Part shown: piece after piece, positions 5,590-22,406 of the stretch
How the letters are laid out: each line of letters opens with the position of its first letter
Numbering within the stretch: the first letter of the stretch is position 1
NCBI GenBank assembly: GCA_019747685.1
Contig: JAIEQN010000995.1
Coordinates: forward strand, 1-39,973
DNA from: Gemmataceae bacterium
GTDB lineage: Bacteria; Planctomycetota; Planctomycetia; Gemmatales; Gemmataceae
DNA length: 39,973 nucleotides
Direction: 5' to 3'
Translations under genes and position numbers: made by a program
Notes under the pieces: model-generated
The model's input: the letters and a program-made list of their open reading frames with translations, nothing else
Databases searched by the model: none
Told to the model about the DNA's origin: nothing

Positions 5590-6531
5590 ATGCGTGTCGC
5601 CATCGGCCGGGCGGCCTCCGTCGCCGTACTGATCGTCACCGCTTGTCGGCCCATGCCGGCGGACCGGCCGCCCCCGGCGCGGGCCGACTTTCCCCGCGAG
5701 CTGGTGGCGTTCGTCCAGCGCGGGGACGGTCCGGTGTTCGAGGCCGCCGGGCCGGGCCATTGGGACATCAAGGTTCGGGAGCGGGGCTGGGTGCTCCGCG
5801 AGGACGGCGCCTACAAGCTCTGGTACACCGGGTACGACGGCACCCCGACCGGCCGGCGGATGCTCGGGCTGGCCACCTCGCCCGACGGGATCACCTGGAC
5901 CCGCCACCCGGCCAACCCGCTCGTCCGCGATCGCTGGGTGGAAGACGTGATGGTCGTCAAGGACGGCGGCCGCTACCTGATGTTCGCCGAGGGGGAGAAT
6001 GACCGGGCACAACTCCTGACCTCCGCCGACGGGGTGTCGTGGGAGCCGCTCGGCCGGCTCGACGTGCGGCTGACCACCGGCGGGCCGATCCCCGACGGGC
6101 CGTTCGGCACCCCGACCGCCCTCCGGGCCGGCGGCCGGTGGCACCTCTTCTACGAGCGGTCGGACAAAGGCGTCTGGCTGGCCACCTCGGACGACTTGAC
6201 GGTCTGGACCAACGTCCGGGACGAGCCGGTCCTCGTTCCCGGGCCGGGGGCCTACGACCGCGACATGATCGCCGTCAACCAGGTGATCGAGGTCGGCGGC
6301 CGGTACTACGCCTACTACCACGGCTGCGCCACGGCCGGCCCGGACGCCCGTAAGTGGTCGACGGCCGTGGCGGTGTCGGACGACCTCCGGCGGTGGGAAA
6401 AGTACCCTGGCAACCCGCTCCTCCCGGTGGCCGAGAACAAGTCGAGCGGGGTAATCGTCCGGGCCGACGACGGGCTGCGGCTCTACACCATGCACCCGGC
6501 CGTCTACCTCCACACCCCCGCCCCGGAGTAG
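5590..6531 (+). CDS. Probable lipoprotein beta-propeller glycosidase (GH43/GH130/GH32-like)
   Basis: Predicted exported carbohydrate-active protein, 313 residues, with the repeated blade pattern of five-bladed glycosidase propellers: YKLWYTGYDG, GLATSPDGITWTRHPANPL, GRYLMFAEGEN, WHLFYERSDKGVWLATSDDLTVWT and RYYAYYHGCA...WSTAVAVSDDLRRWEKYPGNPL. Exact glycoside hydrolase family and substrate cannot be fixed by eye. The ATG at 5590 opens a short hydrophobic segment ending in VTAC, a plausible lipobox, so it may be membrane-anchored outside the cytoplasm. The ORF track's 23 extra residues lack signal-peptide character. Divergent from the DUF1549 operon and convergent with the serine hydrolase. 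Its neighbours fit a polysaccharide-degradation role. Confidence 0.7.
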   Translation: MRVAIGRAASVAVLIVTACRPMPADRPPPARADFPRELVAFVQRGDGPVFEAAGPGHWDIKVRERGWVLREDGAYKLWYTGYDGTPTGRRMLGLATSPDGITWTRHPANPLVRDRWVEDVMVVKDGGRYLMFAEGENDRAQLLTSADGVSWEPLGRLDVRLTTGGPIPDGPFGTPTALRAGGRWHLFYERSDKGVWLATSDDLTVWTNVRDEPVLVPGPGAYDRDMIAVNQVIEVGGRYYAYYHGCATAGPDARKWSTAVAVSDDLRRWEKYPGNPLLPVAENKSSGVIVRADDGLRLYTMHPAVYLHTPAPE

Positions 6532-6550
6532 GAAGGGCGGCCGCTACTCC
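6525..6550. terminator. Candidate bidirectional terminator hairpin containing both stop codons
   Basis: GGAGTAG at 6525-6531 and CTACTCC at 6544-6550 are perfect inverted repeats around a 12-base loop. The stem contains the TAG stop of the propeller gene on the plus strand and the TAG stop of the serine hydrolase on the minus strand. It sits exactly between two convergent genes, as a shared terminator would. No T-run follows on either strand. Confidence 0.4.
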
Positions 6551-8007
6551 TTCTTCCCGATCAGCGGGGCGTCCTTCGTCGGCCCGAACCCGACGTTCAT
6601 CTCCGGCTCGACCCGGACCTCGTCGCCGGCGAAGGCCAGCCGGAGGGTGACGACGAACGGCGTCTCGACGAAGCAGACCTTGGCCGTGAACGTGTCGTCC
6701 GCGGTCCAGGCCCCGCACGCCGCGGCCGGCTGCTCGGCCAGCCGGCCCCACGCCGCCTTCCCCTTCGCCCACGACCCGCGGCCGCAGGCGATCCGCCGCT
6801 CGGTCCCGTCGGCCTTGATGACGAGAGTCGTGTCGCCGTCCTTCCCCTCTTCGAGGGCAACTGATTCGAGCTTCCGGTCGTTGGCCGGGAAGGTGAACTT
6901 CTTACCCTGCACCGCCGCCGGCCGGCCCGTCCCGGGGGGCGTCTTCAGCGACAGCCCCTTGAGGGTGCTAACCAGCTTCGCACGGGCCTCGTCGTTCGGC
7001 GGGAGCTGCGACCCGTTCATCCCCGGCAGGAGCTTGTCCCAGACGAGGTTCAGCACCGCCTGTAGGTCCCGCACGCCGGCCGTGATGGCGATCACCGCGT
7101 CTTGCTCGGGCAGCACGACGCAGTACTGGCCGAACGCCCCGTCGCCCCGGTAGGCCCCGTTCTGGCACCGCCAGAACTGGTAGCCGTACCCCTGGTCCCA
7201 GTCGCTCTTCGGGTTGCTGCCGTTGGAGGTCTGCCGGGCGGTGGCCGCCGCCACCCACGCTTCCGGCACGAGCTGCTTGCCGTTCCACTTCCCCTTCTGC
7301 AAGTAGAGCTGCCCGAACTTGGCGATGTCCTCGGTCCGGACGCTCAGCCCGTACCCGCCGGTGGTGATCCCCTGCGGGCTGGCCTCCCAGGTCGGGTTCT
7401 CGATCCCCAGCGGCTCGAACAGCCGGGGCCGGAGGTAGTCGAGGACGGTCTGGCCGGTGGCCTTCTGGACGGCCGCCGACTGCATGTACGTGGCCGACGT
7501 GTTGTACAGGAAGTGGCTGCCCGGCTTGAACGGGACCGGGTGGGCCAGGAACGTCTTGGTCCACGGCTCGTCCGGCTTGCGGGGCGGCTCGGTCTGGTGG
7601 CCGGTGTTCATCCGCAACAGGTCGCTCACCCGCATCGCCTTCAGGTTGTTGCCGGGGTCTTTCGGCGCGTCTTCGGGGAAGAGCTTTACCAGCTCGTCGT
7701 CGACGCTCAGCTTCCCCTCGGCCACGGCCAGCCCGACCGCCGTGGAGGTGAAGCTCTTGCTGAGCGAGTAGAGCTGGTGGCGGGTCTGGGCCGCGTAGGG
7801 CGACCACCAGCCTTCGGCGACCACCCGGCCGTGGCGGACGAGCATGAAGCTGTGGAGGGAGTCGATGTTCTTATCCGCGGCCTGGACGAACTCCAGGACG
7901 GCCGGGGACGAGACGCCCTGTTCTTCGGGCGAACTCCGGGGCAGGTCGGCCCCGGCCGCCGGGGCGGCGGCCAGGACCACGGCGGCGATGACGGAGAGGA
8001 TTCGCAT
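6544..8007 (-). CDS. Serine hydrolase, class C beta-lactamase fold
   Basis: Secreted serine hydrolase of the beta-lactamase/penicillin-binding-protein-like family, 487 residues. The N-terminus is a signal peptide (MRILSVIAAVVLAAAPAAGA). The catalytic SxxK tetrad is Ser81-Leu-Ser-Lys84 within LYSLSKSFTSTAVG. The second motif, normally YxN, appears as FLYNTSATYM, and the expected 'DELV' and 'VSDLLRMNTGH' landmarks are present. Such proteins act as esterases, DD-peptidases or amidases; substrate is unpredictable. The C-terminal 130 residues form an extra beta-rich domain (KKFTFPANDRKLESVALEEG...) as in other long serine hydrolases. It follows the CE15-like gene by 30 bases on the same strand, so they may be co-transcribed and both act outside the cell. 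Confidence 0.88.
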   Translation of the reverse strand: MRILSVIAAVVLAAAPAAGADLPRSSPEEQGVSSPAVLEFVQAADKNIDSLHSFMLVRHGRVVAEGWWSPYAAQTRHQLYSLSKSFTSTAVGLAVAEGKLSVDDELVKLFPEDAPKDPGNNLKAMRVSDLLRMNTGHQTEPPRKPDEPWTKTFLAHPVPFKPGSHFLYNTSATYMQSAAVQKATGQTVLDYLRPRLFEPLGIENPTWEASPQGITTGGYGLSVRTEDIAKFGQLYLQKGKWNGKQLVPEAWVAAATARQTSNGSNPKSDWDQGYGYQFWRCQNGAYRGDGAFGQYCVVLPEQDAVIAITAGVRDLQAVLNLVWDKLLPGMNGSQLPPNDEARAKLVSTLKGLSLKTPPGTGRPAAVQGKKFTFPANDRKLESVALEEGKDGDTTLVIKADGTERRIACGRGSWAKGKAAWGRLAEQPAAACGAWTADDTFTAKVCFVETPFVVTLRLAFAGDEVRVEPEMNVGFGPTKDAPLIGKKE

Positions 8008-8037
8008 GAGGGAGCCTCGGAAGGTTCGGGGGAGGAG

Positions 8038-9393
8038 TTACTTGGCCGGGGTGTCGAGGTAGCGGGCGGCGAATTTTAGGAAGGTGGGCCAGTTCGGGCC
8101 GGTGGTGTGCCCGCCGGCGTGCTGGCGGAAGGCCACCTCGCCGTCGGTCAGGGCGGTCTCCTGGGGCGGGAACTCGGTCGTTCCGAGGCCCTTCTTGCCG
8201 AGCAGTTCGTACACCGGGCCGGCCCCGACCGCGGCCAGGAACATCCCCCGCGCGTCCACCCACCCGCCCTCGACCTGCTGCGACCCGACGCTGACGAACA
8301 CCGGCCGCGGGGCGCATAGGGCGATCAGCTCGTGGGCATCGACCGGCAGGTCGTTAGCGGTCAGCGGTCCGGCGTACTTCAGGTAGTTCCCGGCCATCCA
8401 GTGGTACTCGCCGGACGACGCCACGTTCTCGACCAGCTCGCCGAAGTTGCGGCGGTGGAGCTTGGCCCCGCCGGCACCCGACGAGCCTATGAAGCCGACG
8501 GCGAAGCGTTGGTCGTAGGCCATCGTCACCAGGGCCGCCTTGCCGTACCGCGACAGCCCCTCGATGCCGACCCGCTTGGCGTCGACGGCCTTGTCCGTCT
8601 CGAAGTAGTCCAGCGCCCGGCCGGCCCCCCAGGCCCAGGCCCGCAGGGCGCCCCAGTCGTCCACCTTCCGCGGCTGGCCCTTGTTGCACAGCCCGATGAT
8701 CCCCTGCGTCAGCCCGCCGCCGTTGTCGGCCTGGATGCTGTTCGGGACGATGATCGCATAGCCCCAGCCCTTCGACAGCACCTGTTGCTGCCAGCCCGGG
8801 CCGCCCTTCGGGGCTGGCGGCGGCTGGCCGGGCGGCCCCTTCTTCGCCGGGAACGCCCCGAACCCGAACTCCAGCATCACCGGCACCGGCCCCTTGGCGT
8901 CCTTCGGGATGGTCAGGGTCAACTGGATGTCCACCTTGACGGCCGGATAGGCCGAGTTGTCGACGTGGCCGACGATCCGCTTGGTCACGGCCGGGATGTC
9001 GCCGACGGTCTGCTCCTCGGTGGCCACGACCTCCCACGTCACCTTCGGCGCCTCCTTCGGCACCCGGCCGTAGACCTCGCGGTCGAAGTCCTCGACGACC
9101 TCCGGCCGCCGCTCCTTCCACCACTGCTCGGCGGTCGTCACCCTCCGCCCGTTCTTGAGGACGAGCGGGTCGGGCAGCTTCGGGTACGGGTTGGCCTTGC
9201 TCTCGTCGTAGTTGGCGGCGTTGTCGGCCTTCGGGTTGTTCCCGTTCGCCCCCCGCCGGAGCTGCTGGATGCCGAGCAGGTCCATCGTCCGCTTGTGATC
9301 CTCCTGGGCGGTCATCTTGACCGGCGGGGGCGGGTCGTCGGCGCGGACGACCGGGACGAGGACCGCGACGAGGAGGAGGGGACGGAGGGTCAT
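8038..9393 (-). CDS. CE15-like glucuronoyl esterase / acetyl xylan esterase-type hydrolase
   Basis: Predicted secreted alpha/beta-hydrolase, 451 residues, resembling carbohydrate esterase family 15, enzymes that cleave glucuronoyl esters linking glucuronoxylan to lignin. The nucleophile region is EGLSRYGKAALV with Ser281; the usual family motif is GCSRxGK, so the Cys is Leu here. Other landmarks are GSSGAGGAKLHRRNFGE, SGEYHWMAGNYLKYAG, HELIALCAPRPVFVSVGS and the C-terminal HAGGHTTGPNW, likely supplying the catalytic His. The signal peptide is short (MTLRPLLLVAVLVPVVRA). A Pro/Gly-rich insertion (GPPGQPPPAPKGGPG) lies before the nucleophile. Context with a propeller glycosidase, enolases and a sugar porter supports a polysaccharide role. 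Substrate is inference. Confidence 0.8.
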   Translation of the reverse strand: MTLRPLLLVAVLVPVVRADDPPPPVKMTAQEDHKRTMDLLGIQQLRRGANGNNPKADNAANYDESKANPYPKLPDPLVLKNGRRVTTAEQWWKERRPEVVEDFDREVYGRVPKEAPKVTWEVVATEEQTVGDIPAVTKRIVGHVDNSAYPAVKVDIQLTLTIPKDAKGPVPVMLEFGFGAFPAKKGPPGQPPPAPKGGPGWQQQVLSKGWGYAIIVPNSIQADNGGGLTQGIIGLCNKGQPRKVDDWGALRAWAWGAGRALDYFETDKAVDAKRVGIEGLSRYGKAALVTMAYDQRFAVGFIGSSGAGGAKLHRRNFGELVENVASSGEYHWMAGNYLKYAGPLTANDLPVDAHELIALCAPRPVFVSVGSQQVEGGWVDARGMFLAAVGAGPVYELLGKKGLGTTEFPPQETALTDGEVAFRQHAGGHTTGPNWPTFLKFAARYLDTPAK

Positions 9394-9481
9394 GGCCGAA
9401 CTCGGGGGTGGATGATGTTAAACCACCCGCCCGCCGGCGGGGCCACGAGAAAACGATGAGAGATGGGCGAGTCAGGATTGG

Positions 9482-14477: not shown

Positions 14478-16421
14478 TCAGCGGTCAACGAACAGCCCGC
14501 CCTGGCCGTCCCGGCGGACGACCCCGTTCGCCGGGGCGGTCGGCCCGGCCAGCTTCGGGTACTCGTCGTCGCCGGCCCCGTCGAAGAAGACGCCGACGGC
14601 CTTGTCCGACGCCCCGCCCGGCGTGCCGCCCACCCGGTAGGTGTCCTTCCCGGCGAGGTCGGCGAACACCCCCCACCCGCCGCGGTCGGCCCGCCCGCAC
14701 CCGACCGACTTGGTCAGGTCGTACCGGTCGTCTCCCTGGCCGTCGGCCAGGAGGAAGACGCTCCGGTCCCAGGCGCAACCGATGTTGTACGTCGGCCCGG
14801 CAGCCACGTACTCGTCGGCCCCGGCGTAGTCGAGGAACAGCCCCAGCCCGTAGTGGGCCCCGGCCGCGTGCCCGTACCGGGCCGCCCCGTGCCGGTCGTC
14901 CCCGGCCAGGTCGAGCTTCAGCCCGGCCCCGAAGAAGTAGGCACACGCCTGCGAGAAGTTGGAACTTTCGGACCGGTCGTTCCCGGCCAGGTCGAGCCAG
15001 ACGCCCACCCCGCCGGCCAGGTTGTACCCGTCCCCCTCTGCGCTGAACGGGTAGGTCCGCCGGCCCAGGCCGATCCCCAGCCCGAAGGCGTCGTACTGGA
15101 AGTTCGGGTCGCCCGGCTTGGCGTTGGGGGCGTCGGTCGCGTTGTACCCGCTGGGGATGGCGAACCCGCACCGGTAGCTGTCGTCGCCGGCGACATCGAC
15201 CACCGCCCCGACCCCGCACGGCCCGCCGATCCCGAGCGAGTAGCCGGGGGCGGTGTAGGTGTCATCGCCGGCGAGGTCGAACACCAGGCCCAGCCCGGCG
15301 ACGGCCGCCCCGAGGGTGAACCGGTCGCCGGTGTAGGCGTCCTGGCCCGCCTCGTCCACCAGTAGCCCGACCCCGGCGAACCCACACCCGCCGGAGCCGG
15401 CGGCGGGGGTGTAAGTGTCGTTCCCGGTCCGGTCGATCAGGACCCCACACCCGAGCCGGCCGGTCGCCAGCCCGAATTCGGCCGGGGCGTAGGTGTCGTC
15501 CCCGGCGAAGTCGACTACCAGCCCGAACGGGTGGGCGGGGTCGAAGCTCGACGCGACGACGCCCTTATAGGTGTCGTCCCCGCCGAGGTCGGCCAGGAAC
15601 GCGACCGGCCGCTTAAGGTCGTAGGCGTTGGCCTTCCCGCCACCCAGGACGATCAGCCCGTGTCGGGTTTCCTTGACCGCCAGCAGCTCGCCGCCGAACC
15701 CGTCCGGATTCTTCCCGGCGAGAGGGGCGGCCTTCGCCATCGCCGCCTTCAGCTCGTCCAGGTAGGTCGGGTCAGTCAGGAGCAAGACCGTCCGGACGGC
15801 GGCGGCGAACTTCGGCCCGTCGACCTTCTCCTGCCAGGCGGTGCAGAAGGCGAGGTCGTCCCGGAGCTGTGGCCGGGTGGTGTCGTCCACCGGCAGTTGC
15901 GGGCCGAACCCGCGGACGAGCGGGGCTGCCCGGTCGAACAGGAACGCCCGCTCGGCCGGCGACAGCTTGGCCAGCGCCTCCTCGCGGAGCTTGTCCGCCG
16001 CGTCGAGGACGGCCGTGATGTACCGGATGTGATCGTCCAACGTCTCCCGCTTGCCCGGCGGCGCGGCGACTGACTCGGCGGCCGGCCGGTCGAGGCAATG
16101 GTTGAGCCGGTCCACGACCGCGGGCAGGCCCTTCAGCCCGCCGCCGGCCGCCGCGGCGACGCCCAGGCCCCGCGCCTCCAGCTCGGCCAGCGCCCCCCAC
16201 GGCTCCTTCACCGCCCGCTGCCGTAGCGGCGGCTTGGCATACGCCTTGACCCCGTCGGCCAGGGCCAGTTCCGCCAGGGCCGCCTTCTGGGCATCGGCCA
16301 GGTGCCGGTCGATCTCCGGCTGGACGGCCTCCCGCACCTTCGGGACCAGCGGCTCCGGGCCGGCGGCCCGGAGGGCGACGGCCGACAAGACTACCACGGC
16401 CGGGGCGAGGAGCGGGCGCAT
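14478..16421 (-). CDS. Exported protein with twelve AGDDTY-type repeats
   Basis: Unrecognised secreted protein, 647 residues. A signal peptide (MRPLLAPAVVVLSAVALRAA) is followed by a mostly helical, Ala/Leu-rich domain to about residue 270. From about residue 277 to 630 a short motif recurs twelve times: D-[LFRVEYG]-[AGTQ]-G-[DNQAK]-D-x-Y or a close variant (DLGGDDTY, DFAGDDTY, DRTGNDTY, DEAGQDAY, DLAGDDTY, DVAGDDSY, DLAGNDRS, DLAGDDRH, DYAGADEY, DGQGDDRY, DLAGKDTY, DGAGDDEY). Gly-rich linkers of 15-60 residues lie between them (GCGVLID, GVGLLVD, GLGLVFD). The pattern resembles a beta-solenoid with acidic turns, perhaps Ca2+-binding like RTX repeats, but it is not the RTX consensus. Stands alone; divergent from the truncated enolase. 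Confidence 0.8.
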   Translation of the reverse strand: MRPLLAPAVVVLSAVALRAAGPEPLVPKVREAVQPEIDRHLADAQKAALAELALADGVKAYAKPPLRQRAVKEPWGALAELEARGLGVAAAAGGGLKGLPAVVDRLNHCLDRPAAESVAAPPGKRETLDDHIRYITAVLDAADKLREEALAKLSPAERAFLFDRAAPLVRGFGPQLPVDDTTRPQLRDDLAFCTAWQEKVDGPKFAAAVRTVLLLTDPTYLDELKAAMAKAAPLAGKNPDGFGGELLAVKETRHGLIVLGGGKANAYDLKRPVAFLADLGGDDTYKGVVASSFDPAHPFGLVVDFAGDDTYAPAEFGLATGRLGCGVLIDRTGNDTYTPAAGSGGCGFAGVGLLVDEAGQDAYTGDRFTLGAAVAGLGLVFDLAGDDTYTAPGYSLGIGGPCGVGAVVDVAGDDSYRCGFAIPSGYNATDAPNAKPGDPNFQYDAFGLGIGLGRRTYPFSAEGDGYNLAGGVGVWLDLAGNDRSESSNFSQACAYFFGAGLKLDLAGDDRHGAARYGHAAGAHYGLGLFLDYAGADEYVAAGPTYNIGCAWDRSVFLLADGQGDDRYDLTKSVGCGRADRGGWGVFADLAGKDTYRVGGTPGGASDKAVGVFFDGAGDDEYPKLAGPTAPANGVVRRDGQGGLFVDR

Positions 16422-16544: not shown

Positions 16545-17225
16545 ATGAAGATCGCCGGCGTCGAAACCCACGTCTGCCACGCCCGGATGCGGAACTGGGT
16601 GTTCGTCAAGGTCGTGACCGACCAGGACGGGCTGTTCGGCTGGGGCGAGGCCACCCTGGAATGGCACACCCGGGCGGTCGTCGGGGCCGTCCAGGACATC
16701 GCGGAGTTGGTCGTCGGCGAGGACCCCACCCGGGTCGAGCACCTGTGGCAGATGATGCACCGCCAGCACTTCTGGCACGGCCACGGCGTCGTCCGGGCGA
16801 CGGCCATCGCCGGCATCGACCTGGCCCTGTGGGACATCCTCGGCAAGGTGTGCGGGGTGCCGTGTTCGAAGCTCTGGGGCGGGCCGGTCCGGGACCACGT
16901 CCGCACCTACTGCCACCTCGGCGGCGGGCGGATGGAGGACTTCTACGAGACGGCCGCGGACGACGCGAAGCGGTTCGCGGATTTGGCCCGCGAGGCCGTC
17001 GCCGCCGGATTCACCGCATTCAAGTGCATGGCCGTGCCGCCGGCCATGCCGATCGAGGGGCTGAAGCCGGTGCGGACGGCCGAGAAGTGCGTGGCCGCTC
17101 ACTACGGTAGCTCGGCGACCTCCCCCCCGGCCCGGGTGGCGAGCGCGGGCAGTACCGCGTCGGCCTCGTACCGGAGGAAGCGGACGGAGCCGTCACAGCA
17201 GGCGAAGTTGGCACCGCCGGGGTGA
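16545..17225 (+). pseudogene. Truncated enolase-superfamily dehydratase (DgoD-like)
   Basis: N-terminal half of a mandelate racemase/muconate-lactonizing-type protein, nearest in appearance to galactonate-dehydratase-like members. The capping domain is clear ([57 protein letters not shown]) and homology continues to [14 protein letters not shown]. After about 185 residues it stops: the remaining codons to the stop at 17225 are antisense to the DUF1559 gene and give low-complexity Ser/Ala/Arg sequence. The barrel half with the metal-binding Asp/Glu/Glu residues and the general acid/base His is missing, so it cannot be a working enzyme of the family. The start is supported by GGAGGGG just before ATG 16545. 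The break falls within a few bases of the DUF1559 stop. Confidence 0.82.
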
Positions 17226-17983
17226 TGGGACCAGTACCGGAGGACATCGCACGGGGCGTCGGCCCGGCCGGGGCGGAACCGGTACGGCCCCGGCGGGCAG
17301 TCCTCCAGGGGCGGCCCCTCCCGCCGCTCCCGAACGCCCAGGATCGAGTCGCCCGACCCCGTCTTGTTCTGCCCCCACCCGGCATACCACCAGCCGAAGT
17401 TGTGTCGGTCGTTCACCGGCCGCTCGCCGATCATCAGGGTGTTGCTGGTCCCGTCGGTGATGGCACGGGCGGCGACCTCGGAGTCGGTGTGAAGTACCCC
17501 GTCCCACGAGTGCAGGTCCAGCCCGGAGACGCCGAGGTAGTTGGTGTGCCCGACCGCGAACGGCCCGAAGTCGTACGGCTCCTGGGCCAGCGGGTCGGCC
17601 GGGCAGACGAACAGCCCGACCTTCCGGCCCAGGATCGGCAGGTGCGGCGGGCCCTCGAAGAACTTGTCCGCGGCGAAGGCGGCCTCGGCTTGCCGCCAGA
17701 GTGGCTCCTGCTCCAGGTACGGGAGCAGCCGGGTCATCCAGGTCATGTGCGGCTGCGGGCTCGCCCCGCCCTTGTAGCTCACCCCGGGCGGGAACGCCCC
17801 GCGGGCGTCGTGGTAGTGCTGGGCCGCCAGGGCGAGCTGGCGGAGCTGGTTCTGACAGGCGGCCCGGGCCGACGCCGCCCGGACCCGCTGGACGGCGGCC
17901 AGCGTCAGGGCCGCCAGCAGGGCGACGATGCCGACGACCACCAGCAACTCGATCAGCGTGAACCCCGGTCGGCCTCGACGCAT
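17102..17983 (-). CDS. DUF1559 pseudopilin-like protein
   Basis: Type II/IV pseudopilin-like planctomycete protein, 293 residues. Begins with a short basic leader and a prepilin peptidase site, [20 protein letters not shown], so the N-terminus should be cleaved after the Gly and methylated at Phe. The DUF1559 body includes [34 protein letters not shown] and the C-terminal hallmark [20 protein letters not shown]; it ends normally with [13 protein letters not shown] start at ATG 17983, preceded by GAGGAGG. The ORF track's 97-residue extension is shadow sequence. The start overlaps the MauE/DoxX gene by 31 bases. Last gene of a four-gene overlapping run. Probably an inner-membrane protein projecting outward; whether it forms a filament is unknown. 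Confidence 0.9.
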
Positions 17984-18429
17984 CGCGCGGCCTCCTCGGC
18001 TGGGGACGGGCGGCGGGCGAGGACGAATCCGGCCAGCGACCCGACCGCACAGCCCCCGGCCACCGCCAGGGTCGCCGGGCCGACGGGCAGGCCCTCGCCG
18101 GACCCGAAGCACCCGCACGTAATGTCCAGGCCCCGGTGCGGGGCGCTCCACTGGGCCGCCAGGTAGGCCGCGAACAACACCAGCGCCGCCAGGTAGGCCC
18201 CCCGGGCCCACCACCCGGCCAGCAGGCAGACCCCGACCGCGGCGTGGACCCCGGGGGTCGCGGCCGCGGCCCACAGCCCGACCCGCTCGCCGACGATCCG
18301 GTAGTTGTAGACGCTCGACAGGTAGTAGTACGGGTGGCCGAGGTGGGCGACGGCGCTGCCGAGCAGGGCGGCCGCCAGCCCGGCCCCGACCAGCCGCTCG
18401 ACCAAGCCCCGCCGACGGCTACTCGTCAT
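17953..18429 (-). CDS. MauE/DoxX-type redox membrane protein
   Basis: Inner-membrane protein of about 158 residues with about four transmembrane helices (LVGAGLAAALLGSAVAHLG, VHAAVGVCLLAGWW, AYLAALVLFAAYLAAQW, LAVAGGCAVGSLAGFVLA). The loop DITCGCFGSGEG carries the CxC/CGCFG signature of the MauE branch of the DoxX superfamily. MauE is needed for disulfide formation in the methylamine dehydrogenase small subunit; related proteins are linked to thiol oxidation or sulfur transfer. I start at ATG 18429, which leaves an 11-base overlap with the rhodanese gene; the ORF track's extra 14 residues are shadow. Next to a rhodanese fusion and a six-Cys exported protein, a role in envelope thiol chemistry is attractive but inferred. 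Confidence 0.82.
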   Translation of the reverse strand: MTSSRRRGLVERLVGAGLAAALLGSAVAHLGHPYYYLSSVYNYRIVGERVGLWAAAATPGVHAAVGVCLLAGWWARGAYLAALVLFAAYLAAQWSAPHRGLDITCGCFGSGEGLPVGPATLAVAGGCAVGSLAGFVLARRPSPAEEAARCVEADRGSR

Positions 18430-19456
18430 CGCCCGCCCACCCCACCCAGCCCCCGCGGAACACGCGGACATCCCGGTAGCCGCGGTGGTACAGGTCCGCC
18501 GCGACGGTGTCCGCCCACTGGCACGACCGGCTCTGGCAGTACACCACGACCGGCCCGCCCGGGGGAAGGGCCGCCGTCACCGCCCGCCGCTCCGCCAGCC
18601 CGGCCGACACCGGCAGGTTCACCGCCCCCGGGACGTGCCCCAGGGCGTAGTCCGCCGGCAGCCGGGCGTCGATGAAGGTGACCGCCGGCGCCCCGGCCAG
18701 CGCCCGGGCTTCGACGGCGTCGATCTCGGGGACACCGGCCGGGAAGTGGTGCCCGACCACCAGCGCGACCGCCGACCGGTCCCGCAGCAGCCCGTCCGGG
18801 TCGAGCGCCTGGAGGGCCACCCCGGCGGCACCGCCGACCCCGACCACCACACACGCCCCGACGACCGGGCCCGCCCGCCGCGCCGGCCCCCAGGCCCGGA
18901 GCAGCCCGAGGGCGGCCGTGACCACGGCCACGCACGCCAGCCCGTACCCCCACGACCCGGCCCGCAGGGCGAGCGGGTCGGGCGGGGCCGTCGAGACTAC
19001 CACCCCGGCGCCGTCCCAGAGGGCCGCGAGTTCGGCGTAGGGGAGGAGCTGCGGCTCCGCGGGCGGCTCGACGACCCGGGCCAGGCCGCCCTCGTCGCCC
19101 GCGTACAGGACCCAGTGGAGGTACGGCATCCCCAACCCGGGGCGGCGGACGTGGAGGACGACCGGGTGCCGCGAGTCGCGGAGGGACTGCGGGGTCAGGC
19201 CGGTCATCGGGGTGGCGACCAGGCCGCACGCCCGGGCCGCCCGGCACAGCTCCTCGGCCGAACTGCCCCGGTACGACCCGACGTATTCGCGGCTGAGGAG
19301 GCGCGACAGGTCGGCGTCGGTCCCGAGCATCCGGGCGGCCGCGTACACGCAGTAGACGCCGCAGTACGGCCCCTCGGAGGCGGGCAGGGCGGGGCCGCCG
19401 CCCGTCGCCCGGGCCGCCTCGACCGCCGCCGCCAGGAACAGCAGGCCCGGGGTCAT
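18419..19456 (-). CDS. C39-like peptidase domain fused to a rhodanese domain
   Basis: Unusual 345-residue membrane fusion. An N-terminal hydrophobic segment precedes a C39-like cysteine peptidase fold (residues 25-155): Cys32/Cys36 in GPYCGVYCVYAAARMLG, His114 in YLHWVLYAGD, and VEPP at about 129 where the family usually has a DP motif. Two transmembrane segments follow (SWGYGLACVAVVTAALGLL, about 169-186; GPVVGACVVVGVGGAAGVAL, about 196-215). The C-terminus is a rhodanese domain (VTFIDARLPADYALGHVPGA...) with active-site loop CQSRSC starting at Cys307. It starts at ATG 19456, overlapping the upstream stop by ATGA; the ORF track's 58 extra residues are shadow. The topology may put one catalytic domain on each side of the membrane or both on one side. 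It may be a protease, or a non-peptidase C39 as in some exporters. Confidence 0.8.
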   Translation of the reverse strand: MTPGLLFLAAAVEAARATGGGPALPASEGPYCGVYCVYAAARMLGTDADLSRLLSREYVGSYRGSSAEELCRAARACGLVATPMTGLTPQSLRDSRHPVVLHVRRPGLGMPYLHWVLYAGDEGGLARVVEPPAEPQLLPYAELAALWDGAGVVVSTAPPDPLALRAGSWGYGLACVAVVTAALGLLRAWGPARRAGPVVGACVVVGVGGAAGVALQALDPDGLLRDRSAVALVVGHHFPAGVPEIDAVEARALAGAPAVTFIDARLPADYALGHVPGAVNLPVSAGLAERRAVTAALPPGGPVVVYCQSRSCQWADTVAADLYHRGYRDVRVFRGGWVGWAGDDE

Positions 19457-20574
19457 GCGGCCGCCCCCCGCCGGGCCGCCAGCCGCCACACCCCCCCCGC
19501 GACCGCCACCAGCCCGGCCGCGGCCCCCGCGTACACCCACCACGGGGTGTGGGAGGCGGGCGTGAACGGCGACACCTCCCCCTGGGCGACGGCCTGGTTG
19601 ACGGTCTTGACGATCTTCCCCCCCCGCCACTCATACTGGATGGGCTGGTCGTCCCACACGCTCACCTTGGTCCCATCGGGGACGATCGTACTCAGCACGA
19701 ATGGGTCCTTGTCCCACCTGTCGACCACCTTGATGTCACTTATGGACACTTCCTCGATTAGATCGTCCGTCGACCCATCGGCGTATGTGTTAGTCGCCGT
19801 GTGTCTAAACTCCGTCACCATCCGGCCGGCGCCGACCTTGTTGATCCTGCTTATGTTGTATTCCTGCTTCCAGCTAGTCAGTTTGACGGGCTTGCCGTCC
19901 TCGTCCTTCGTGACCGAACCGACCGGCACTCCCTCGTAGATCAAGTCGCCCGCTGACTTTTCCTGAGCAATCCGGACCGGCAGATACCCGTTGGCAGGGT
20001 CGAGCCAGACGTTGAGCCGCCCCCACCGCCCGGCGGATTCGACCAGCACCGCGGGTTTCCCATTCAAGGGTGTCGGTTCGGTCTTGACCCGCCCGTCGCG
20101 GATCAACTCGGGCAGGGGTATGAACCCGTTCGTGTTCGTCCGCCCGTCGAGCGCCAGGCTGTACGGCCCGTACGTCAACCGCTGCAGCAGCTCAGGGGGC
20201 AGCGGGCGGACGTACGCCGAGACCCCGCTCAACGCCCGTCCGGTCTTGGGGTCAGCCGAGACGCTGATCTCCCCGGCCGCCGAGATGACCTCCTCGCCCT
20301 GGCTTGTGTTGGTGACCTGCCGGCCGTCTTGCATGGACGTGGTCGACCCCCGATCCAGTACTTTCCACCGCGGCGGGTCGAAGTAGATGTGGCCGACCCG
20401 GACGGTGGGAAGTGGAGACTTCGGGTCGTAACCCATACGGGTCGTGGCGGTAAACGACCCGCGGGGGATGGCCGGGTAGTTGCGGGTTAGTTCGTCGACC
20501 GGGTCTTGCGCGCCCACACTAGGACTGACGCAGACCAGAAGTAGTAGTACCACGGCAATCCGGTGGATGGCCAC
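19453..20574 (-). CDS. Secreted protein with C-terminal membrane anchor, LolA-like appearance
   Basis: Not firmly recognised. 373 residues with a signal peptide (AIHRIAVVLLLLVCVSPSVGAQ), a long beta-rich body (SFTATTRMGYDP, VGHIYFDPPRWKV, WLDPANGYLPVRIAQE, KLTSWKQEYNISRINK) and a C-terminal membrane helix plus basic tail (WVYAGAAAGLVAVAGGVWRLAARRG), so most of it should face outward. The alternating beta strands and 'WLDPANGYLPVR' recall LolA/outer-membrane lipoprotein-sorting-like folds, but this is only an impression. I start at GTG 20574, preceded by GGAGGGT; the ORF track's 33 extra residues have no signal character. Its stop overlaps the C39-rhodanese start. Base composition is less GC-rich than flanking genes, with more Thr, Lys and Asn, suggesting a different history. 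Confidence 0.65.
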   Translation of the reverse strand: MAIHRIAVVLLLLVCVSPSVGAQDPVDELTRNYPAIPRGSFTATTRMGYDPKSPLPTVRVGHIYFDPPRWKVLDRGSTTSMQDGRQVTNTSQGEEVISAAGEISVSADPKTGRALSGVSAYVRPLPPELLQRLTYGPYSLALDGRTNTNGFIPLPELIRDGRVKTEPTPLNGKPAVLVESAGRWGRLNVWLDPANGYLPVRIAQEKSAGDLIYEGVPVGSVTKDEDGKPVKLTSWKQEYNISRINKVGAGRMVTEFRHTATNTYADGSTDDLIEEVSISDIKVVDRWDKDPFVLSTIVPDGTKVSVWDDQPIQYEWRGGKIVKTVNQAVAQGEVSPFTPASHTPWWVYAGAAAGLVAVAGGVWRLAARRGAAA

Positions 20575-20767: not shown

Positions 20768-21142
20768 TTACTGGGCCTGTTGGATGGTACAGTTCTTGTC
20801 GCTCTTCTTCAGCGTGTACCGCTTGCACTTGCCGAGCGGGTCCGTGGTACAGGTCATTTTGTCGTTGTTGTACCGCGAGGTGATGTTGGTACCCGGGAGT
20901 TCCTTCCGGTAGATGTTATACGTACCCGGATCGCACGCCACTCCACCGGTCTCGGAGTAGGGTATGTTCTTGCAGTTGGGGGTCTCGATGTCGTTGGCGT
21001 TGCAGGGCTCGACGGGTCGCGGTTCCGGGATGGCCCCGGTGATCTCGGCGGCGAGGCCGCCCATGTGCTGGGGGCCGGACCAGACGACGGCCCCGAGCAG
21101 GACGGCGAACGGGAGAAGGCGGACGGCGACGAGCTTGACCAC
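20768..21142 (-). CDS. Small exported six-cysteine protein
   Basis: Unrecognised 124-residue protein. A basic, hydrophobic leader (VKLVAVRLLPFAVLLGAVVW) runs into SGPQHMGGLAAEI, then a mature region of roughly 85-95 residues with exactly six cysteines (PCNAND, PNCKN, VACDP, MTCTTD, GKCKRY, NCTIQ), suggesting three disulfides or a metal/sulfur site. The mature part is Asn/Thr/Lys-rich. I start at GTG 21142 because AGGAGGT lies 5 bases upstream; the ORF track start at 21370 is in noncoding or shadow sequence. GC is strikingly low (30 of 60 bases in 20761-20820). It sits 193 bases upstream of the anchored secreted protein and may be the substrate or partner of the redox module. The GG could be a processing site, unproven. 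Confidence 0.65.
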   Translation of the reverse strand: MVKLVAVRLLPFAVLLGAVVWSGPQHMGGLAAEITGAIPEPRPVEPCNANDIETPNCKNIPYSETGGVACDPGTYNIYRKELPGTNITSRYNNDKMTCTTDPLGKCKRYTLKKSDKNCTIQQAQ

Positions 21143-21287
21143 GGGGACCTCCTGGGTGCAAGTGTTGCCAGAAGACGGGGGTAGGTAAGAAGTGCCCCCG
21201 TACTGAATCCTAATGACGCCCGCCCCCCCCCCCGTCAAGTGTACAAAATTAAAAAAACGCAACCTCCCCCAGCCTTCGCCGGCCCGC
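21143..21287. other. Intergenic region with homopolymer tracts upstream of the six-Cys gene
   Basis: This 145-base gap separates the enolase stop from the six-Cys gene on the minus strand. It contains a run of eleven C (21223-21233) and the AT-rich patch GTACAAAATTAAAAAAACGC (21241-21260), which on the minus strand reads as seven T followed by AATTTTGTAC. A weak stem (CCGGC/GCTGG) lies about 12 bases before the T-run. It could be the enolase transcript end, the promoter region of the downstream module (TTGACG at 21238-21233, minus), or both. No convincing -10 was found at normal spacing. Confidence 0.35.
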
Positions 21288-22406
21288 TCATCCCGACTCG
21301 GCCACGAGGTACTTCTTGACGAAGCCCTCGTCGAGCGTGACCCCGAGGCCGGGGCGGTCCGGGACCTCAATCCAGCCGCCGACCGACTGCACCTTCTCGA
21401 CCGTCAGCTCGTGCCGCAGGGGCGAGTCCTCGACGCAGTCCTCGAACAGGAAGGCGTCCCGGCAGGTGCTCAGCCAGTGCAGGCTGGCGGCCGCCGTCAG
21501 CGGGCTGGTGTAGCAGTGGTTGCACAGCCGGCCGCCGGCCTCCTCGACCCGGGCCCGGATGTACGCCGCGTCGGTGAACCCGCACCGCGACAGATCGACC
21601 TGGTATACGTCGAGCGCCCGCCGGTCGATGAACGGCCGGAACGACTCCCGGCCGCACTCGCCCTCGCCGGCCGCGATCGGGACCGGCGACCGGTCCCGCA
21701 GCCAGACGTACCCGTCGATGTCGTCCTCCCGCAACGGCTCCTCGAACCACTCGGGCCGGTACTCGGCGAAGGCGTGGGCCCGCCGCAGGGCCGTCCGGGC
21801 GTCGTACACGCAGCCGGCGTCGATGAGCAGCGTCGCGTCGCCCAGCCCGTCGCGGGCACCCCGGACGAGGTCGATGTCCACCGCCTCGGACGTGCCCATC
21901 GGCTCCCACCCGAACTTGACGGCCGTGTAGCCCTCGCCGACCCACCGCCGGGCGATGTCGGCCGTCGCCTTGCCGTCCCGGCCGAACAGGATCGACGCAT
22001 ACCCGCGGATGCGGTCGTGCTGCTTGCCGCCGAGCAGCCGGTGGATCGGCTGGCCGAATGCCTTCCCCTTCAGGTCCCACAGGGCCATGTCCACCGCGGC
22101 CATCGCCGTGATGCCGACGGCCGTGCGGCCGAAGTACATCGTCCGCCGGTACATCGTCTGCCACAGCCGCTCGTGGTCGAGCGGGTTCACGCCGACCAGG
22201 AGCTGCCGCAGCCCGCAGGCGATGTTGTGGCTGAACGGGGCGTCGACGATCGCCTTCACCACCTCCGGCGACGAGTCGGCCTCGCCGACCCCTTCGAGGC
22301 CGTCGTCGGTCCGGACGCGGACGAGGACCGAGTCCTGGCTACTCGCCGTCTTGGCGGTGATGTTCGGGATGCGGAGGATTTGGCAGACGACCTCGGTGAT
22401 CTTCAT
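21288..22406 (-). CDS. Enolase-superfamily acid-sugar dehydratase/racemase (full length)
   Basis: Mandelate racemase/muconate-lactonizing enzyme family, 372 residues, complete. Capping domain: MKITEVVCQILRIPNI, GLEGVGEADSSPEVV, AVDMALWDLKGK, HRLLGGKQHDRI. Barrel: AVKFGWEP (catalytic Lys region), metal ligands in LLIDAGC (Asp), WFEEPL (Glu) and IAAGEGECGRE (Glu), and CNHCYTSPL with the likely general acid/base His. Members abstract a proton next to a carboxylate, usually dehydrating aldonic or uronic acids or epimerising them; substrate is not readable. Cytoplasmic. It follows the large secreted-protein gene by 24 bases, so the two are probably one transcript. It is not the missing part of the truncated paralogue at 16545: both halves are present and the orientation is opposite. 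Confidence 0.88.
   Translation of the reverse strand: MKITEVVCQILRIPNITAKTASSQDSVLVRVRTDDGLEGVGEADSSPEVVKAIVDAPFSHNIACGLRQLLVGVNPLDHERLWQTMYRRTMYFGRTAVGITAMAAVDMALWDLKGKAFGQPIHRLLGGKQHDRIRGYASILFGRDGKATADIARRWVGEGYTAVKFGWEPMGTSEAVDIDLVRGARDGLGDATLLIDAGCVYDARTALRRAHAFAEYRPEWFEEPLREDDIDGYVWLRDRSPVPIAAGEGECGRESFRPFIDRRALDVYQVDLSRCGFTDAAYIRARVEEAGGRLCNHCYTSPLTAAASLHWLSTCRDAFLFEDCVEDSPLRHELTVEKVQSVGGWIEVPDRPGLGVTLDEGFVKKYLVAESG

What the first reader, a model, noticed from the sequence alone, without database searches (positions are those of the whole stretch)
20768..21142. Small exported six-cysteine protein with a GG site after its leader
A leader with HMGGLAAE at its end precedes an Asn/Thr-rich mature region with six Cys. 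It is just upstream of a protein with a C39-like domain, the fold that processes GG leaders. A secreted disulfide-rich peptide, a redox protein or an effector are all possible.
Basis: inference. Interest (0 to 1): 0.6.

Follow-up and report, generated by a model that had tools for sequence, protein, structure and literature searches.

The report
Planctomycete cassette for disulfide-rich secreted protein
The small six-cysteine protein is real and heads a five-gene cassette, scattered through planctomycetes, that appears to export, cut, cross-link and secrete fast-evolving cysteine-rich miniproteins using an unusual outside-the-membrane relative of the bacteriocin-processing protease.

Summary
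The gene is real (minus strand, 20768-21142, GTG start, strong Shine-Dalgarno, dN/dS 0.31 against a relative) and encodes a six-Cys protein with a signal-like leader. The gene heads an operon: LolA-like protein, C39 protease-TM-TM-rhodanese, MauE, DUF1559 pseudopilin. About 36 such cassettes occur in Planctomycetia; nearly all complete ones carry a short exported Cys-rich protein of otherwise unrelated sequence. In 34 of these, -2 is always Gly and -1 Gly/Ala/Ser; mature Cys number is even in 23 of 26 families. A blind six-frame rule finds 31 such ORFs, all beside C39, none elsewhere. C39 Cys and His are 35/35 conserved. Best reading: Sec export, cleavage by an outward-facing C39 protease at a double-glycine-type site, thiol handling by MauE/rhodanese; cleavage and chemistry are inferred. 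In 6 of 28 loci (0 of 232 controls) a G/C homopolymer abuts a -35-like box upstream, suggesting phase variation. There is no fused ABC exporter. The product's activity is unknown (bacteriocin-like or surface protein). New variant of a known kind.

The parts
20768..21142 (-). Cys-rich exported precursor ('head' gene), 124 aa, GTG start
   Evidence: homologue with all six Cys, dN/dS 0.31
21147..21153 (-). Shine-Dalgarno AGGAGGT, also present before the G091 homologue (CAGGAGGTCCC-ATG)
21032..21142 (-). predicted leader, residues 1-37 (Sec-like h-region about residues 10-21)
   Evidence: cleavage itself is inferred
21032..21043 (-). conserved ITGA, predicted double-glycine-type C39 site (cut after A37)
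   Evidence: Gly36 invariant, Ala/Ser37 in 7 relatives; family motif in 34 heads
21056..21067 (-).
20771..21031 (-). predicted mature miniprotein, 87 aa, six Cys (predicted three disulfides)
   Evidence: pairing is inferred
19453..20574 (-). P2: exported LolA-fold protein with C-terminal TM anchor
   Evidence: AlphaFold pLDDT 82, Foldseek top hits LolA/LolA superfamily 4.7e-9; TM
18419..19456 (-). P3: C39-like Cys protease - 2 TM - rhodanese
   Evidence: Pfam PF03412 5.9e-6, PF00581 1.5e-16; Cys and His 35/35
18989..19363 (-). C39-like domain, catalytic Cys32 and His114; third-residue position is Glu here (Asp in most)
18434..18715 (-). rhodanese domain with YCQSxxC
17953..18429 (-). MauE-type membrane protein with CGC motif
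   Evidence: Pfam PF07291 1.9e-17; CGC in 30/31 loci
17102..17983 (-). DUF1559 pseudopilin-like protein (N-methylation motif, H-X9-DG C-terminus)
   Evidence: fused to MauE in one ORF in several relatives
21223..21238 (-). TTGAC followed by G11: possible -35 box abutting a homopolymer (phase-variable promoter?)
   Evidence: identical 22-bp block in G091; tract enriched before this cassette in 6/28 loci vs 0/232 controls

Best explanation
The gene encodes the precursor of a small secreted disulfide-rich protein, and the four genes behind it are its dedicated maturation line. Steps: (1) the leader takes the precursor through the Sec pathway [inferred from the h-region]; (2) on the outer face of the cytoplasmic membrane the membrane-anchored LolA-like protein holds or passes on the unfolded precursor [inferred from fold]; (3) the C39-like Cys protease, facing outward, cuts after the hydrophobic-x-Gly-[Gly/Ala/Ser] motif, here ITGA|IPEP [motif and catalytic Cys/His shown by conservation; cleavage inferred]; (4) MauE (CGC) and the rhodanese (CxSxxC) move electrons or sulfur so that the Cys pair into disulfides [even Cys numbers shown; chemistry inferred]; (5) the DUF1559 pseudopilin, or in other planctomycetes a PMT-type glycosyltransferase, handles a late step such as release or glycosylation [inferred]. 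The mature part evolves quickly and is probably used outside the cell, most likely in competition or as a variable surface component.
For: Operon of five co-directional genes, the last four overlapping. About 36 cassettes in Planctomycetia with C39-rhodanese followed by MauE and preceded by P2. Short exported Cys-rich head in nearly all complete ones; a blind six-frame rule gives 31 hits on the same strand within 3.5 kb of C39 and 0 elsewhere or on the other strand. Motif [VILMF]xG[GAS] in 19/23 head families vs 5.3 in shuffles (0/5000) and 7/185 other exported-looking ORFs; three heads found later also fit the relaxed motif: ILGA, IYGA, AVGG. Gly at -2 34/34, Gly/Ala/Ser at -1, V/I/L at -4 in 26/34, as in known double-Gly substrates (GG, GA, GS; Val-4 pocket; PMC6363468). 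Mature Cys even in 23/26 families, p 9e-5, only 16/26 for whole precursors. Catalytic Cys and His 35/35. A P2-C39 fusion in L093 with a TM, a basic stretch, then a second TM places C39 outside. Tandem heads in L087/L089 have leaders more alike than matures, and those genomes hold no other copies.
Against: No cleavage, disulfide or secretion has been measured. The C39 triad Asp is Glu in the window (Asp 29, Asn 3, Glu 2 of 35) and the oxyanion Gln is absent. The classical Leu-12/Glu-8/Leu-7 leader consensus is not seen. Two complete-looking loci (L094, L106) have no recognisable head. AlphaFold gave no fold for the head (pLDDT 39). A signal-peptidase I cut at GLA|A cannot be excluded. DUF1559 is adjacent in fewer than half of the loci.
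Confidence: 0.6

Rival explanations
1. Ordinary Sec preprotein: signal peptidase I cuts (for example GLA|AE) and the G-[GAS] motif is only part of a propeptide or a docking sequence; the C39-like domain acts as a binding or folding factor, not as a protease.
For: Sec-like h-region; GLA|A and in G091 GPA|T are acceptable -3/-1 residues; C39 Asp and Gln not strictly kept.
Against: The motif lies a median of 17 residues past the h-region and has V/I/L at -4 with free choice at -3, unlike signal peptidase I sites; catalytic Cys and His are invariant; controls lack the motif.
Confidence: 0.22
2. The head is a redox or sulfur-carrier protein of an extracytoplasmic sulfur relay (rhodanese-MauE), its Cys being used catalytically rather than as structural disulfides.
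For: Rhodanese with CxSxxC and MauE CGC next door, both conserved.
Against: Cys number, spacing and whole sequence of the head vary from locus to locus (6 to 13 Cys) while even numbers prevail; no conserved CxxC active site seen in the heads.
Confidence: 0.1
3. The head is a cargo or tip of a DUF1559 pseudopilus, a structural surface protein rather than a released peptide.
For: DUF1559 directly downstream in the window, and in one ORF with MauE in L029, L081, L083, L102, L106, L113, L118.
Against: Many cassettes lack an adjacent DUF1559 gene; several have a PMT-type glycosyltransferase there instead.
Confidence: 0.2

Closest known systems
Double-glycine leader peptides with C39 peptidase-containing ABC transporters (PCAT/AMS; ComA, LahT, PCAT1)
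   Same: C39 fold (nearest solved relatives ComA and LahT), Gly-Gly/Ala/Ser site, hydrophobic -4, short Cys-containing products, leader more conserved than product in tandem copies
   Different: No ABC transporter; protease predicted outside the membrane and fused to a rhodanese; precursor has a Sec-like h-region; no Leu-12/Glu-8/Leu-7 signature
MauE-dependent maturation of methylamine dehydrogenase small subunit (MauA)
   Same: MauE beside a small exported protein with many Cys to be oxidised (from general knowledge of the mau cluster)
   Different: No MauD or MauA seen here; the partner is a C39-rhodanese protein and the Cys protein is highly variable
LolA/LolB superfamily carriers
   Same: P2 has the fold
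   Different: About 10% sequence identity, extra length, fixed in the membrane by a C-terminal TM, no Pfam hit
Phase-variable promoters with poly-G tracts (Neisseria porA; PMC3639595)
   Same: G/C homopolymer abutting a -35-like box upstream of a predicted secreted-product operon
   Different: No length variation within a strain shown here; organism unrelated

Membership tests
Double-glycine peptide / C39 system | Gly-Gly, Gly-Ala or Gly-Ser before the mature part, hydrophobic residue at -4 | tested here: met
   (34 heads), for controls; window ITGA
Double-glycine peptide / C39 system | Leu-12, Glu-8, Leu-7 leader consensus | tested here: not met
   column counts
Double-glycine peptide / C39 system | C39 domain with catalytic Cys and His | tested here: met
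   Pfam hit; 35/35
Double-glycine peptide / C39 system | C39 Asp of the triad | tested here: inconclusive
   Asp 29, Asn 3, Glu 2 (window Glu)
PCAT/AMS exporter | C39 fused to an ABC transporter | tested here: not met
   only C39 and rhodanese domains
Bacteriocin | antibacterial activity and immunity gene | not testable with these tools
   no assay; no immunity gene recognised
MauE family | PF07291 membrane domain | tested here: met
   1.9e-17; CGC motif
LolA superfamily | LolA half-barrel fold | tested here: met
   best E 4.7e-9, target TM-score about 0.5 (predicted model only)
Known Pfam or NCBIfam family for the head | any significant profile hit | tested here: not met
Phase-variable promoter | homopolymer in the promoter region | tested here: met
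   (promoter itself inferred from -35-like box)
Phase-variable promoter | tract length differs between cells of one strain and changes expression | not testable with these tools
   needs reads and expression data

The most novel reading that the evidence does not exclude
Planctomycetes possess their own phase-variable system for making secreted disulfide-rich miniproteins: Sec export, then cleavage at a double-glycine-type site by an extracytoplasmic C39-rhodanese protease, dedicated MauE-driven thiol chemistry, and glycosylation or pseudopilin-aided release, with no ABC exporter.
Probability: 0.4. Interest if true: 0.8.

Novelty: new variant of a known kind. Interest (0 to 1): 0.66.

Why it matters
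Planctomycetes are hard to study and their competition and surface proteins are largely unknown. The cassette gives a sequence rule (signal-like leader, hydrophobic-x-G-[GAS], even number of Cys, next to C39-rhodanese and MauE) that finds a hidden class of fast-evolving secreted miniproteins with no family model. It suggests that C39 proteases can work outside the membrane on Sec-exported substrates, separate from ABC export, coupled to a rhodanese and MauE. The apparent poly-G/C promoter switch would be a candidate case of phase variation in a phylum where the papers searched describe none.

Tried and rejected
HMGG as the cleavage site: rejected, not conserved. Chance ORF: rejected (dN/dS 0.31, Shine-Dalgarno, homologue). 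Fold of the head by AlphaFold with 7 relatives: failed, pLDDT 39. Pfam, NCBIfam and PDB sequence hits for the head: only insignificant ones. Direct search of the head in genome contigs found nothing; weak hits at E 0.006-0.09 were not followed up. Terminator or hairpin between head and P2: none above chance. Plasmid origin: no hit. Literature on a planctomycete C39-rhodanese-MauE cassette: none found. The C39 hits of about 730 aa were set aside as probable ordinary ABC exporters. Lipoprotein (lipobox) reading of the leader: no Cys directly after the motif. A structure job for the C39 domain was not spent, since Pfam and the PDB profile match were clear.

Full report
OBSERVATION. A same-genus genome (G091, anonymous handle; contig of a Gemmataceae MAG) has a 59% identical homologue with an ATG start, the same Shine-Dalgarno and all six Cys; dN 0.33, dS 1.06. 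No Pfam, NCBIfam or PDB family matches.

NEIGHBOURS. The gene heads a run on the minus strand: P2 19453-20574 (exported, C-terminal TM), P3 18419-19456 (C39-like domain, two TM, rhodanese), MauE 17953-18429, DUF1559 pseudopilin 17102-17983; P2/P3, P3/MauE and MauE/DUF1559 overlap by about 4 to 31 bases. AlphaFold gives P2 a confident model (pLDDT 82) whose nearest solved structures are LolA proteins. The enolase-superfamily gene upstream (21288-22406) is not part of it.

RELATED LOCI. A profile of the C39 domain was run over 95 genomes of the family (11 hits), 398 of the class (32 hits) and 392 of the phylum. With a scan of named genome contigs this gives about 36 loci, with patchy occurrence in roughly 8% of class genomes. 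C39-rhodanese is followed by MauE in practically all of them, and an exported protein with a C-terminal TM (P2 position) precedes it. P2 and C39 share one ORF in L093, and MauE and DUF1559 share one in L029, L081, L083, L102, L106, L113 and L118; such fusions are good evidence of joint work. In several loci of other families the gene after MauE is a PMT-type glycosyltransferase instead.

HEADS. Looking only for short ORFs with a hydrophobic N-terminus and at least three or four Cys beside the cassette gave 34 head proteins in 26 families (40% identity cut), with 6 to 13 mature Cys and 57-103 mature residues. The heads were picked by me on the cassette strand, and a few were picked after the motif had been seen. 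Therefore I ran a blind six-frame rule (length, h-region, motif, six or more Cys): 31 hits, all on the cassette strand within 3.5 kb of C39, none on the opposite strand or further away. Loci without a hit are cut by contig ends (L083, L085, L104), are not cassettes (L108), narrowly miss the rule (L093, YVGA) or truly lack a recognisable head (L094, L106).

THE SITE. Between h-region and first mature Cys, [VILMF]xG[GAS] occurs in 19 of 23 families against 5.3 in shuffles and in 7 of 185 other exported-looking ORFs; P2 proteins 0 of 17. Three heads found afterwards fit, two strictly and one with Ala at -4: ILGA, IYGA, AVGG. Aligned on the site: -4 V 18, I 5, A 4, L 3; -3 free; -2 Gly 34 of 34 (by construction of the alignment on G-[GAS]); -1 Gly 19, Ala 14, Ser 1. 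This matches the described double-Gly motif (GG, GA, GS) and the Val-4 pocket of LahT (PMC6363468), but not the Leu-12/Glu-8/Leu-7 part. In the window's own subfamily, Gly36 is invariant and residue 37 is Ala or Ser in seven members, mostly nine residues before CNA. HMGG is not conserved.

DISULFIDES. Cut at the motif, the mature parts have an even number of Cys in 23 of 26 families (p 9e-5), against 16 of 26 for whole precursors. This supports both full pairing and the position of the cut. MauE keeps CGC in 30 of 31 loci and the rhodanese keeps CxSxxC.

PROTEASE. C39 Cys and His are invariant in 35 of 35; the nearest solved relatives are ComA and LahT. Asp is mostly kept (29 of 35), Glu in the window. 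The N-terminal signal or TM in most C39 proteins and the TM-basic-TM join in the L093 fusion put the domain outside the cytoplasm; this is a prediction.

EVOLUTION AND REGULATION. In L087 (three tandem heads) and L089 (two), leaders are 63-92% identical and matures 34-70%; these two genomes hold no further copies. In the window a TTGAC box is directly followed by G11, 80-91 bases before the start codon, and a 22-base block is identical in G091, although the rest of the intergenic region has diverged. A G/C run of nine or more within 200 bases upstream of the first cassette gene is found in 6 of 28 loci and 0 of 232 control starts (Fisher 9e-7; window and G091 are not independent), each beside a -35-like box. 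This resembles the poly-G promoter switch of porA (PMC3639595). Variation within a strain was not testable.

MECHANISM AND VERDICT. Shown: real gene, conserved operon, conserved G-[GAS] site, conserved Cys/His of the protease, even Cys numbers, LolA fold of P2 by prediction. Inferred: Sec export, cleavage after ITGA, thiol chemistry by MauE/rhodanese, role of the pseudopilin or glycosyltransferase, secretion, phase variation. Unknown: what the mature protein does. Against a plain signal-peptidase story stand the distance from the h-region and the -4/-2/-1 pattern, but it is not excluded. I file it as a new variant of double-glycine/C39 peptide maturation, not as a member of the PCAT or bacteriocin families.

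Noticed in passing
window 21223-21238; L024 709-719; L025 7425; L102 5139; L105 4816; L106 5789: G/C homopolymers of 9-27 bases directly next to -35-like boxes upstream of the cassette in 6 of 28 loci, 0 of 232 controls: possible phase-variable promoters in planctomycetes.
   Followed up: partly
L118 10404: TTGACATC-G12 in the same region but away from the cassette: perhaps another phase-variable promoter.
   Followed up: no
L084, L086, L099 (unassigned) and L091, L097, L100, L101, L105, L106, after MauE: A 530-640 aa protein follows the MauE gene; six of those scanned match PMT-type glycosyltransferases, so the head proteins may be O-glycosylated; in L091 MauE is read through into a family-2-like glycosyltransferase.
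   Followed up: partly
L026 (G072) 6097-9458: Second, decayed copy of the cassette: P2 frameshifted, C39 reduced to a remnant, DUF1559 split by a transposase-like ORF; the same genome has an intact cassette in L093.
   Followed up: partly
L109 6192-7952 (G385): Different C39 protein without rhodanese or MauE, preceded by a 98-aa Cys-rich protein with a classical-looking EASMLKGG leader end.
   Followed up: no
L113 (contig labelled Nitrospira sp. MAG): Whole cassette with head, P2, C39-rhodanese and MauE-DUF1559 in one ORF, closest to Gemmataceae ones; probably a mis-binned contig, otherwise a transfer between phyla.
   Followed up: no
window 14478-16421 (-): 647-aa protein with repeats of the type D-x-x-G-x-D-x-Y, no Pfam hit; an unassigned repeat protein.
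   Followed up: no
L107 6339-8566: P2 and C39 run together and the C39 domain is split over two frames: frameshift or sequencing error.
   Followed up: no
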